From positions 223,550-287,549 of the forward strand of contig CANRCD010000001.1 in the NCBI GenBank assembly GCA_947629005.1: a stretch of DNA of 64,000 bases. The letters run 5' to 3'. The translations under genes were made by a program, and so were the position numbers. This DNA is from an uncultured Clostridia bacterium. Its GTDB lineage: Bacteria; Bacillota; Clostridia; UMGS1883. A model generated the notes under the pieces. The model saw only the letters and a program-made list of their open reading frames with translations, was not told where the DNA came from and ran no database searches. Positions 9,528 to 12,784 of this stretch are shown piece after piece (positions within the stretch are counted from its first letter, which is position 1; every line of letters starts with the position of its first letter).

Positions 9528-10511
9528 ATGCCTAAAAGCGTGTTCAAAGAGGACGACTTGCCGCGCTCGGCAAAAAGCTTTTTGAGCTATATGAGCAACA
9601 TTAAGGGCAAGTCTGACAAAACCGTTCATGAATACTATTACGATTTGCGCACTTTTTTCAGATTCATGAAATGCTCGCGCGGACTTGCGGATTTTGATGA
9701 TTTTAACGAAATAGACTGCTCCGACATTGACGACGCGTTTCTGCGCGGCGTTACCCTTGACGATATGTACGAGTTCCTTACATATACGAACCGCCTGCGT
9801 GACAATAACGCCAATTCACGCGCCAGAAAGGTTTCCTGCCTTAAGAGTTATTTTAATTACCTTTCTACCAAGGCCGGCGTGCTTGAGGTCAATGTCACCA
9901 AGGAGCTCGAATCTCCCAAGCTTCCGGCACGGCTGCCCACTTATCTCACACTTGACGAAAGCAAGCGTCTGCTCGAGGCCGTTGACGGCGAATTTAAGGT
10001 ACGCGATTACTGTATTATCCTACTTTTCCTCAACTGCGGTATGCGTCTTAGCGAGTTAGTGGGCATTAATATTAACGATATTTCGGGCGATAAATTAACA
10101 GTTATTGGTAAAGGAAACAAGCAGCGCATAATATACCTTAATTCGTCCTGCGTTGAGGCAATAAACGAATATTTAAAAATTCGTCCCAAAAACAATCTTA
10201 AGGACAGGAACGCCTTGTTCCTGAGTAAGCAAAAATCCCGCATTTCCAATAACATGGTTTATAAAATGGTACAGAAAAATCTGCTGCGCGCGGGACTTGA
10301 CCCGAGCCGCTATTCGCCGCATAAGCTGCGTCACACGGCGGCTACGCTGATGTACAAGCACGGCAACGTCGATGTTCGCGCACTTCAGGAGATATTAGGC
10401 CACGAGCAGCTTTCCACAACGCAGATATATACCCACGTGGACGAGGAGGAGCTTCGCGGCGCAATTGAGCGCAATCCGCTCGCCGATTTTAAGAAGGGAG
10501 AACAGTTATGA
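9528..10511 (+). CDS. xerC: Tyrosine recombinase (XerC/XerD type)
   Basis: A 327-residue recombinase with an N-terminal SAM-like DNA-binding domain (residues about 15-130) and a C-terminal catalytic domain. The active-site set is complete: Arg in GMRLSEL near 173, Lys in GKGNKQR near 199, HKLRH near 266, His in LGHEQL near 289 and the nucleophile Tyr in TQIYTHV near 301. Size and layout fit chromosome-dimer resolution enzymes rather than phage integrases, and no prophage genes are nearby; whether it is XerC or XerD cannot be told. It overlaps msrA by 4 bases, which couples their translation. Confidence 0.9.
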   Translation: MPKSVFKEDDLPRSAKSFLSYMSNIKGKSDKTVHEYYYDLRTFFRFMKCSRGLADFDDFNEIDCSDIDDAFLRGVTLDDMYEFLTYTNRLRDNNANSRARKVSCLKSYFNYLSTKAGVLEVNVTKELESPKLPARLPTYLTLDESKRLLEAVDGEFKVRDYCIILLFLNCGMRLSELVGININDISGDKLTVIGKGNKQRIIYLNSSCVEAINEYLKIRPKNNLKDRNALFLSKQKSRISNNMVYKMVQKNLLRAGLDPSRYSPHKLRHTAATLMYKHGNVDVRALQEILGHEQLSTTQIYTHVDEEELRGAIERNPLADFKKGEQL

Positions 10512-10999
10512 AAACTATTTATCTTGCAGGGGGCTGCTTTTGGGGCGTCCAGAAGTATATGGATCAGTTTGACGGTATAATTTCAACCGAAGTAGGCTAC
10601 GCGAACGGCAATACCGCCTCCCCCACTTACGAGGACGTTAAAGCCCAGAAAAGCGGCCACGCCGAGACCGTAAAGGTGGACTATGACGAAAGCGTCATTT
10701 CCCTCGAAGACGTCTTAAAAAAATACTATATCGTTATCGACCCCACCTCCCTCAATAAGCAGGGCGGCGACGTCGGCATATCCTACCGCACCGGCATATA
10801 CTATACCGACCCCGCCGACCTCGAGGTAATAAACAAGGTCACGGACGAGGTTCGCGCAAGGAACAAAAAGCCTGTTGTCGTCGAGATTGAGGAGCTTAAA
10901 AACTACTATCCGGCCGAGGATTACCACCAGAAGTATTTGGATAAAAACCCCGGCGGCTACTGCCATATAGGCGCTTGCTTTTTCGGCGCGGGGAAATAA
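10508..10999 (+). CDS. msrA: Peptide-methionine (S)-S-oxide reductase MsrA
   Basis: A 163-residue MsrA that repairs methionine-S-sulfoxide in proteins. The catalytic motif GGCFWG is at residues 8-13 and the protein ends with NPGGYCHIGACFFGAGK, which supplies two possible resolving Cys (near residues 152 and 157). There is no MsrB fusion. The ATG overlaps the recombinase stop (ATGA). A second methionine-sulfoxide enzyme is at 15785-16249. Confidence 0.97.
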   Translation: MKTIYLAGGCFWGVQKYMDQFDGIISTEVGYANGNTASPTYEDVKAQKSGHAETVKVDYDESVISLEDVLKKYYIVIDPTSLNKQGGDVGISYRTGIYYTDPADLEVINKVTDEVRARNKKPVVVEIEELKNYYPAEDYHQKYLDKNPGGYCHIGACFFGAGK

Positions 11000-11055
11000 A
11001 AATTGCAGGCTTCTGTAGCTTGGAGGTACGGGGCCGGCCGAAAAAATCGCGCAGA

Positions 11056-11149
11056 ACGAACGAAAATCAGCTCGCGCAGGCTGCTTTAGCAGCCGAGCAA
11101 GCACTCCCGACGGCGTACATAAGTACGCCGAGTGGTGATTTTCGTTCGT
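11056..11149. repeat. Nested palindromic element (three-way-junction shape)
   Basis: Outer arms ACGAACGAAAATCA (11056-11069) and TGATTTTCGTTCGT (11136-11149) are perfect 14-base inverted repeats. Inside lie two more hairpins: GGCTGC/GCAGCC (11079-11094) and CGGCGTAC/GTACGCCG (11111-11130), the latter extended by CACTC/GAGTG. It lies in the 300-base gap between msrA and the convergent anti-sigma gene. No ORF explains it. It may be a dispersed palindromic repeat or an RNA. Confidence 0.75.
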
Positions 11150-11171
11150 AGTTCGAGGGCTTAAAATAACG

Positions 11172-11197
11172 AAAATCCGCTCATTTGAGCGGATTTT
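11172..11197 (+). terminator. Terminator downstream of msrA
   Basis: AAAATCCGCTC / GAGCGGATTTT hairpin with T-rich end; symmetrical, so it may also serve the convergent minus-strand operon. The remaining bases to 11303 show nothing recognisable. Confidence 0.75.
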
Positions 11198-11303
11198 CTA
11201 CATTAACTTATCGCTTTTTACTAAACACATAATGCTCAAAGCGGCTTTAAATCAATACATTCAGCCCTTGAACGGTCTGCGCTATTTTTTTACGGCCCCT
11301 TTG

Positions 11304-12314
11304 TTATAAAGTAATGGTTACGCCGTGTACTGTAACGCTCACAAGGTCGTCCACGTCATGTATTTCGTCAAAGCGACGGCCTACGGAGGTAATACCACCG
11401 CTTCTCTCGTCTTGAAAGCTTGAAAAGCTGAAGTTGCTTTTTTCGGCCTTGCCGCCCGAAATACTCTGCCTTATCTCGCTGCCGTCGCTGAATGTGTACA
11501 CCGGCTCTACCGCAGACATAACGTCGTCGCCCTCGAATTTCAGCCAAACCGACAGGGGCGAAACCTCGACCTCGGTCAGCGTCGCGCTCCTGCCGTATGC
11601 CTCGGGGAAGTCGATTTTTACGTTGGGGTGAACGATTTTCGTGGAAACGCTGTAATCAAAGGCCCAGTCCATCTTAACCTCGCCTTCCCATACCGGAACG
11701 AACCAACAGTCGGTTTTGTCGTCGTTCCAAGCGTAATACCCAAAGTTTTTAAGCTTGAACGTCAGCTCGCCGCTCTTAAGCTTATCTCTGCCCGAAATTT
11801 CGTCCATAAAGATGGCCTTGTTTTCGTCGTGCGACAGCATATTGCACCCCTCTACAACCGTTCCTAAGGTCGAGCTGTCGCAATCGTAATCGGCGTTAAG
11901 CGAATAATGCTCGAAATTCATTTCGTCCGTTATTTCCGTCCCTTCGGGATATTCGGCCTCGAACAGCACATAAAGGGCGTGGCTGTCGGTCACGGTTTGC
12001 AGTACGTTAAACGTCCAGCCGCCGTCCGACGCGCTGACCTGCGGGAAGCCGGACGCGCCGGTCATTTCCTGTTCCTGCTCGGGCGTTGCGCCGATAAATT
12101 CCAAAAACCTTTCGTTCCACCTAAAGGCCGCGCCGAGGGCCGTCAGCCCAAGCGCGACTATTACCGCCGCGGCGACGACCGCGGCTCCTATGCCTTTCAC
12201 GCTGACCTTCATTTCCGTATTCTCCTCTCTTAAATCCGCCTCGGGAGACGCCGTGTTTTCGCGCATGATTTCTCCGTGCAGCTTCATTCTGTTTTCAAAA
12301 TCATGAAGATTCAT
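11304..12314 (-). CDS. Anti-sigma factor-like membrane protein (DUF4179 type)
   Basis: A 336-residue single-pass protein: a 40-residue cytoplasmic head, a membrane segment around residues 41-65 (IGAAVVAAAVIVALGLTALG), then a large beta-rich extracellular part. This layout and its position, overlapping the stop of an ECF sigma gene by 4 bases, mark it as the cognate regulator. It lacks the HxxxCxxC zinc motif of ZAS anti-sigma factors and resembles DUF4179/RsiV-like partners. The extracellular part probably senses an envelope signal; the signal is unknown. Confidence 0.78.
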   Translation of the reverse strand: MNLHDFENRMKLHGEIMRENTASPEADLREENTEMKVSVKGIGAAVVAAAVIVALGLTALGAAFRWNERFLEFIGATPEQEQEMTGASGFPQVSASDGGWTFNVLQTVTDSHALYVLFEAEYPEGTEITDEMNFEHYSLNADYDCDSSTLGTVVEGCNMLSHDENKAIFMDEISGRDKLKSGELTFKLKNFGYYAWNDDKTDCWFVPVWEGEVKMDWAFDYSVSTKIVHPNVKIDFPEAYGRSATLTEVEVSPLSVWLKFEGDDVMSAVEPVYTFSDGSEIRQSISGGKAEKSNFSFSSFQDERSGGITSVGRRFDEIHDVDDLVSVTVHGVTITL

Positions 12315-12784
12315 TCGTCCGCATCTCCTTCCAACATCTGCTTAAGCTTTTCCAAAGCCCTTTTCGTTCTGAATTTTACGGTAGATACAGGCTGACGCAG
12401 CGAGCGCGCCGCCTCCTCGTATGTGAGACCGCCGTAAAACCGCAGCGTTATGTATTTGGCCTCGCCGCTATCCATTCGGCAAAGGCAGTCCACAATCTCA
12501 ATTTCCTCGTCGGGTATGCGCGAAAACGCCCCAATTTTGTCGGAAAGCTCGGGCGCGGCGCGCCTAGATCTCAGCGCGGCCTTACACTTATTTATGAGTA
12601 TCCGCGTCAGCCATGTTTTGAAATACTCGGGATTTTTTAACCCCGACAGTCCCTTTAGCGCGGCCAGCGCCGCCTCCTGAACCGCGTCCTTCGCGTCCTC
12701 GGCGTTGTGCATATACCCGACCGCAATGAGGAAGAGCGACCTTTCGGCTTCCCTAAAGCCGGCCTCAAAGTCAGATTTTTCCAT
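12311..12784 (-). CDS. ECF RNA polymerase sigma factor (first)
   Basis: A 157-residue sigma-70 family member with region 2 (GYMHNAEDAKDAVQEAALAA-like, residues about 18-45) and region 4 with a helix-turn-helix (LTYEEAARSLRQPVSTVKFR, about 122-142). There is no region 1 or 3, so it is ECF class. RBS AGGAGGT precedes the ATG. The gene upstream on the minus strand is separated by a terminator, and the promoter at 12832-12865 has an ECF-type -10, which suggests autoregulation. Confidence 0.92.
   Translation of the reverse strand: MEKSDFEAGFREAERSLFLIAVGYMHNAEDAKDAVQEAALAALKGLSGLKNPEYFKTWLTRILINKCKAALRSRRAAPELSDKIGAFSRIPDEEIEIVDCLCRMDSGEAKYITLRFYGGLTYEEAARSLRQPVSTVKFRTKRALEKLKQMLEGDADE

What the first reader, a model, noticed from the sequence alone, without database searches (positions are those of the whole stretch)
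11056..11149. Nested palindrome with three stems between convergent operons
A 14-bp perfect outer stem encloses two further hairpins (11079-11094 and 11111-11130), giving a cloverleaf-like or three-way-junction fold. The arrangement is too regular for a terminator, and a separate terminator follows at 11172. It may be a dispersed palindromic repeat (REP/MITE-like) or a small RNA.
Basis: seen in the sequence. Interest (0 to 1): 0.55.

Follow-up and report, generated by a model that had tools for sequence, protein, structure and literature searches.

The report
Mobile folded repeat at gene ends
The palindrome is the middle of a roughly 300-base folded DNA element scattered through the genomes of many gut Clostridia, usually just behind the ends of genes; it behaves like a tiny mobile element that keeps its folded shape while its sequence changes, but what moves it is unknown.

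Summary
The nested palindrome is real (14-bp stem, two hairpins; z = -8.1), but it is only the centre of a ~300-bp element (about 10990-11299). The window's genome has 24 BLAST matches, about 23 places, and all 7 other genomes of its genus carry copies. Copies lie at different sites: of 83 sampled copies only one pair shares both flanking genes. Pairing is kept through double changes: 15 of 22 pairs, no shuffle of 500 as high. Ends abut gene 3' ends: 47 of 61 right ends lie -11 to +25 nt from a convergent ORF's stop. Rfam, phages, plasmids and IMG/VR gave no match. Best reading: a non-autonomous, MITE/BOX-like modular repeat, moved in trans by an unidentified enzyme and tolerated at gene ends. 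Target duplications were not detected, and no tested recombinase family accounts for its movement. A new variant of a known kind.

The parts
10990..11299 (+). whole element as best delimited (about 310 bp); left limit uncertain and overlaps the last codons of the MsrA gene
   Evidence: alignment of 14 own-genome copies and of 73 copies from seven genomes of the genus; right limit sharp, left limit variable
10990..11029 (+). left outer segment; degenerate here (consensus GGGGCTGTAAAAAAACTCGCTCTGTAATCTGGAGGCAC); in other lineages this place holds a terminator-like hairpin
   Evidence: in this copy assigned by eye from the alignment
11030..11055 (+). 5' arm of outer stem P0 (GGGGCCGGCCGAAAAAATCGCGCAGA)
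11056..11069 (+). 5' arm of P1, the 14-bp stem of the finding
   Evidence: pair counts
11079..11094 (+). hairpin H1, the most variable arm (replaced, enlarged or missing in other copies)
11106..11135 (+). hairpin H2 (tip 11111-11130), the most sequence-conserved part (CCCGA-GGCGTAC-nnnn-GTACGCC-GAGnGG)
   Evidence: 98.6% of cells paired, 3 of 7 pairs invariant in 52 sequences
11136..11149 (+). 3' arm of P1
11151..11161 (+). 5' arm of P2 (GTTCGAGGGCT)
   Evidence: one terminator-like site, minus strand; shuffles mean 0.7; double changes in 6 of 12 pairs
11263..11273 (+). 3' arm of P2 (AGCCCTTGAAC)
11276..11299 (+). 3' arm of P0 and right terminal inverted repeat (TCTGCGCTATTTTTTTACGGCCCC)
10508..10999 (+). 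upstream gene, peptide methionine sulfoxide reductase (MsrA)
11304..12314 (-). convergent ORF, 336 aa, no Pfam match at E 1e-4; its stop lies 4 bases from the element

Best explanation
This is one copy of a non-autonomous mobile intergenic element of about 300 bp. SHOWN: it is dispersed in many copies; sampled copies are mostly at non-orthologous sites; it is predicted to fold as outer stem P0 enclosing two arms, P1 (with H1 and H2) and P2 (with T); pairing is kept while sequence changes; copies abut gene 3' ends; arms can be lost or exchanged. INFERRED: the ends (P0 arms with TTTTTTTACRGCCCC-type termini) are what an unidentified enzyme recognises in trans; copies persist behind stop codons because there they break no gene and can double as transcription terminators; the fold is kept by selection in the active source copies, while individual copies then decay.
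For: Copies: 24 own-genome BLAST matches, 14 covariance-model matches; 18 of 60 genomes searched by BLAST, including all 7 other genomes of the genus; 45 of 291 genomes, 27 of 180 genera of the class. Movement: of 83 sampled copies 1 pair shares both flanking genes; 84 BLAST match rows in G078, several 94-100% identical to the query over 200+ bp. Structure: 15 of 22 pairs with double changes, 119 double-changed cells vs 40.2 shuffled, 0/500 reach it, sliding partners destroys it. Gene ends: convergent ORFs end at the right boundary in 56 of 61 copies (170-nt window) against 20 of 61, 17 of 59 and 5 of 39 at 100-300 bp offsets; 50 of 61 vs 24 of 61, 16 of 61 and 12 of 60 on the left. Modularity: P1-less copies L348, L349 and copies with foreign sequence in place of P1 (L350, L351, L359, L360) in G078. 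Decay: non-majority G-U 67 vs A-C 60 cells in stems, i.e. no strand preference among scattered changes.
Against: No target-site duplication signal, even though the right end is well defined; one copy (L109) shows a possible 8-bp repeat by eye. No autonomous relative with matching ends was seen. Y1_Tnp (20 of 45 element-positive vs 121 of 246 negative genomes), RVT_1 (16 of 45 vs 102 of 246), IS110 (0 of 8 over cut-off) and Mutator transposases (4 of 8) do not track it. Non-orthology was judged on about 13 copies per genome, not on complete sets. Shared wobble pairs and the more stable + strand (42 of 52; shuffled control 33 of 52) hint at a strand-specific role that a plain DNA transposon would not need.
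Confidence: 0.7

Rival explanations
1. A structured RNA whose + strand transcript has a job (for example binding a host protein through H2), and whose spread is secondary.
For: Compensatory changes across families; H2 sequence nearly fixed while P1 changes freely; wobble pairs common in P0 (U-G 50 of 72) and P1 (G-U 55 of 72 in the genus; 34 of 52 class-wide) with A-C there in at most 1; + strand more stable in 42 of 52; an H2-like hairpin recurs in a Bifidobacterium (L168).
Against: No strand preference among scattered changes (67 vs 60); left gene + in 53 and - in 29, right gene - in 47 and + in 35 of 83 rows, so no clear orientation to one neighbour; P1-less copies exist at two sites; no sigma-70-like promoter in this copy.
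Confidence: 0.2
2. A DNA palindrome kept tidy by template switching (quasi-palindrome correction), so that the compensatory changes reflect replication and not selection.
For: Perfect long stems, loop orientation inverted between some left hairpins in G078 (L301 vs L302), equal G-U and A-C among scattered changes.
Against: The H2 sequence and some unpaired positions are conserved without pairing need; correction alone does not conserve the three-arm layout over the 13 families with matches.
Confidence: 0.25
3. A transcription terminator or 3' end signal of host genes that has been copied around by recombination only, not a mobile element.
For: Tight position behind stop codons on both sides; terminator-like hairpin T and terminator-like left hairpins in G078 and G023.
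Against: The 300-bp three-arm structure far exceeds a terminator; many near-identical copies in G078; nested insertions and tandem head-to-tail copies.
Confidence: 0.12
4. A REP/REPIN-type repeat moved by a Y1 (RAYT) transposase.
For: Palindromic, intergenic, high copy number.
Against: Unit of ~300 bp instead of 20-40 bp; no Y1_Tnp match at E 1e-10 listed for the own genome G000 or for G078, the genome with the youngest copies seen; 20 of 45 element-bearing genomes have one against 121 of 246 others.
Confidence: 0.03

Closest known systems
BOX elements of Streptococcus pneumoniae (PMC3049150: abstract and passages seen)
   Same: Modular, MITE-like, 67-637 bp, terminal inverted repeats, predicted RNA fold, found clustered and inserted into one another, a middle module that can be absent
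   Different: BOX is reported with target-site duplications; no signal for them here. Different arms, and this family spans many families of one class instead of streptococci
bcr1 repeat of the Bacillus cereus group (original paper not held; seen only as entries in PMC2267715, and in a search listing)
   Same: Dispersed repeat with a conserved predicted secondary structure, described in a cited title as having mobile element characteristics
   Different: About 150-170 bp and group-specific according to that table and title; this one is ~300 bp, three-armed and much wider
SPRITE of S. pneumoniae (PMC3049150, passages)
   Same: AAAA/TTTT-flanked terminator-like dispersed repeat; TSD could not be established there either
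   Different: A single 18-bp duplex, no three-arm fold
Classical prokaryotic MITEs (review PMC10969869, passages seen)
   Same: Non-coding, terminal inverted repeats, intergenic, stable fold if transcribed
   Different: No TSD signal and no parent insertion sequence found
Palindromic candidate structured RNAs in human microbiomes (PMC8040213, passages seen)
   Same: Computed structured, palindromic intergenic families in gut bacteria, many predicted as terminators
   Different: The passages name only Bacteroidetes examples; the supplementary tables could not be opened, so the same family may be listed there without a name

Membership tests
MITE | short, non-coding, dispersed in many intergenic copies | tested here: met
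   intergenic position; interior ORFs were not tested systematically
MITE | terminal inverted repeats | tested here: met
   GGGGCYGTAAAAAAA / TTTTTTTACRGCCCC and P0 arms; left outer copy degenerate in many copies
MITE | target-site duplication | tested here: not met
   no offset or length from 2 to 9 stands out over permuted flanks in 32 copies; old copies and the uncertain left limit reduce power
MITE | ends match an autonomous insertion sequence | tested here: inconclusive
   right-end pattern search of the own genome gave 14 sites; of the 7 loci inspected none was an insertion sequence with both ends; G078 matches showed none; genomes are drafts
BOX-type modular repeat | exchangeable or optional inner modules | tested here: met
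   P1-less and P1-replaced copies in G078; compact 154-bp tandem form L166; nested domains in L022, L027, L028, L031
BOX-type modular repeat | sequence relationship to boxA/boxB/boxC | not tested
   no BOX sequence was fetched or aligned
REP/REPIN | 20-40 bp palindrome with GTAG or CGTC tag (definition from abstract of PMC3733652, listing) | tested here: not met
   unit ~300 bp; a GTAG occurs in P1's flank here but is not kept (L160, L228 lack it)
REP/REPIN | RAYT (Y1_Tnp) in the genome | tested here: not met
   none in G000 at E 1e-10, and G078 not among the matches
Rfam families | covariance-model match above the gathering score | tested here: not met
   only tRNAs elsewhere in the loci, and sub-threshold Leu_leader (25.5 and 23.2 bits, threshold 50) and STnc350 (18.4, threshold 60)
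Intrinsic terminator | GC hairpin followed by a T run | tested here: inconclusive
   one on the minus strand (11198-11171); expected by chance 0.7; termination itself not testable here
Small RNA gene | own promoter and transcript | not testable with these tools
   no expression data; no sigma-70-like promoter found in 10980-11330

The most novel reading that the evidence does not exclude
A class-wide RNA family that is itself a mobile element: the + strand is transcribed from source copies, folds into the P0-P1-P2 shape, and its nearly invariant H2 hairpin is held by a conserved host or transposase protein that guides insertion behind gene ends or terminators, a bacterial counterpart of a SINE or of RNA-guided transposition.
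Probability: 0.12. Interest if true: 0.85.

Novelty: new variant of a known kind. Interest (0 to 1): 0.5.

Why it matters
Small folded mobile repeats are known from a few well-studied genera. A family spread over many families of gut Clostridia, with compensatory evolution, a near-invariant hairpin, exchangeable arms and a strong preference for gene 3' ends would be a good case for asking what moves such elements and whether RNA structure takes part. Many copies stand at contig ends, so it breaks assemblies, and it has no match in Rfam 15, so annotation of these genomes is likely to miss it.

Tried and rejected
Rejected: single-copy chance palindrome; known RNA family; phage, plasmid or IMG/VR origin (no match; the IMG/VR test was one 26-base pattern only); REP/RAYT; reverse-transcriptase-driven spread (no RVT_1 match at E 1e-10 listed for the own genome or G078); IS110 bridge-RNA type; Mutator (none in G078).

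Led nowhere: TSD search; search for long versions with a gene inside; text search for the H2 letters in the paper library (two unrelated papers); paper searches for a described family. The nested second and third repeats were not identified. The strand comparison stayed weak. The idea that left hairpins are pre-existing host terminators behind which the element inserts was considered and not adopted: in the window's genus the left segment travels with the unit.

Rows dropped before counts: 10 of 83 copies (nested, truncated or cut at a contig end) before the 73-copy alignment; one search used 52 of the 98 non-redundant stretches (reverse-complement duplicates, chance hits and near repeats left out by hand, and L168 of Bifidobacterium left out); one search used the 61 copies of the window's genus with both boundaries recognised out of 83 loci; one search has 74 rows including one duplicate row (L014) and two loci read on both strands (L299, L300), so one search is the one to trust. 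One search scored at most 14 places per genome, so copy numbers are lower bounds.

Full report
What is there. It lies between the MsrA gene (10508-10999, Pfam PMSR) and a convergent ORF (11304-12314) without a Pfam match.

Extent. A BLAST of 11030-11165 against the window's own genome gave 24 matches; two of them are the two halves of one copy (L028), so about 23 places. Alignment showed that similarity runs well beyond the palindrome. In many copies of the genus a further left segment (GGGGCTGTAAAAAAACTCGCTCTGTAATCTGG..) precedes P0. In this window that segment is degenerate and overlaps the end of the MsrA gene.

It is a family, and it is not fixed in place. All 7 other genomes of the genus gave 13 or more matches (the search scored about 13 per genome) and 18 of 60 genomes gave some. 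Of 83 copies with flanks from seven genomes, one pair (L118 in G007, L121 in G006) shares both neighbouring genes; 14 further pairs share a gene family on one side only. Copies per genome were sampled, so missed orthologues are possible. Genome G078 of another family gave 84 match rows, several 94-100% identical to the query over 200 bases or more; many end at contig ends, as expected of a recent repeat.

Structure is conserved by compensation. Within the genus several pairs changed on both sides, e.g. C-G 40 and U-A 33 in T, and G-C 53 and U-A 19 in the inner part of P1. Across 52 diverse copies, 15 of the 22 pairs of P1 and H2 have double changes and 93.1% of cells pair; 119 cells are double-changed against 40.2 in shuffles, 0 of 500 shuffles reach any of the five measures, and sliding the partners by one to three columns removes the signal. 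H2 keeps its sequence while P1 changes freely and H1 is replaced outright.

Distribution. A scan of named genomes stopped at its limit with 118 stretches; most of the 80 titles shown are MAGs of Clostridia or Oscillospiraceae, many named after animal guts. The clear exception is Bifidobacterium leontopitheci (L168), where an H2-like hairpin sits in a different palindrome. There was no match in phage or plasmid records, nor for one 26-base pattern in IMG/VR, and no Rfam match above threshold that falls on the element.

Where it sits. In 61 copies of the genus with both ends recognised, a convergent ORF of at least 80 codons ends in a 170-nt window at the right end in 56, and a sense ORF ends at the left end in 50. 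The same test moved 100, 200 or 300 bases away gives 20 of 61, 17 of 59 and 5 of 39 on the right, and 24 of 61, 16 of 61 and 12 of 60 on the left. In 47 of 61 the convergent stop lies -11 to +25 nt from the right end; those at -10 appear to use the TAA contained in the terminal repeat. These are ORF calls without a gene finder. The rough orientation tally was convergent 27, tandem 46 (26 and 20), divergent 8, one side undetermined 2, of 83.

Modularity. G078 has copies lacking P1 at two sites (L348, L349), copies where P1 is replaced or interrupted by another sequence (L350, L351, L359, L360) and copies interrupted in H2 (L352, L363). L166 is a 154-bp tandem form without T. In the own genome some copies contain other repeats (L022, L027, L028, L031). 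So P1 may not be needed for spreading, although the two P1-less copies could be independent deletions at the short repeat ATAG.

What moves it. No target duplication signal was found in 32 copies with good ends. Y1 transposases occur in 141 of 291 genomes and reverse transcriptases in 118 of 291. Crossing these lists by hand gives 20 of 45 and 16 of 45 element-bearing genomes, against 121 and 102 of 246 others, so no association. Neither is listed for the own genome or G078. In 8 element-bearing genomes IS110 passes its cut-off in none and Mutator in 4, not in G078. No gene-bearing version was seen. The enzyme is unknown.

RNA or DNA. For RNA: compensation, conserved wobble pairs in P0 and P1, and a + strand that folds more stably in 42 of 52 copies (33 of 52 for shuffled letters). 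Against: among non-majority cells in stems G-U and A-C are nearly equal (67 and 60), as expected if individual copies drift without selection on either strand. Together this fits a fold maintained in source copies, with ordinary copies decaying. Template switching in palindromes remains possible.

Comparison. The nearest described kinds are BOX and SPRITE repeats (PMC3049150, passages), bcr1 (only via PMC2267715 and listings) and MITEs in general (PMC10969869, passages). The layout works like BOX. Full MITE membership is not claimed, because target duplications were tested and not seen and no parent element was found. I found no description of this family in the searches; the tables of PMC8040213 could not be opened.

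Noticed in passing
L027, L028 and G000:C2:50736-50935; partial matches at G000:C12:13-464: A second dispersed sequence (about 200 bp) nested in element copies; a related unit of about 178 bp stands three times in tandem at the end of contig C12.
   Followed up: partly
L031, L028, L022 and other places in the own genome: A third dispersed palindromic repeat (120-bp query, 20 matches in the own genome), also nested in copies of the element.
   Followed up: partly
L182 and L183 (Oscillospiraceae MAG HAN083): Two different copies are both interrupted in hairpin T by the same sequence (TATGCACCCCAAAAGTTAGAC..), which resembles an IS3-type end from memory; an insertion sequence may target this hairpin.
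   Followed up: no
L168 (Bifidobacterium leontopitheci): Tandem palindromes carry the H2-like hairpin CCCGAAGGCGTAC..GTACGCCGAGTGGTGA in an actinobacterium, without the rest of the element.
   Followed up: no
L301 and L302 (G078): The loop of the left hairpin is inverted between copies (AAATTTATT versus AATAAATTT), as if the hairpin had been flipped.
   Followed up: no
window 12311-12784 (-) with 11304-12314 (-): A sigma-70-like factor gene (Pfam Sigma70_r2, r4_2) directly upstream of the 336-aa ORF without a Pfam match; an anti-sigma partner is a guess.
   Followed up: no
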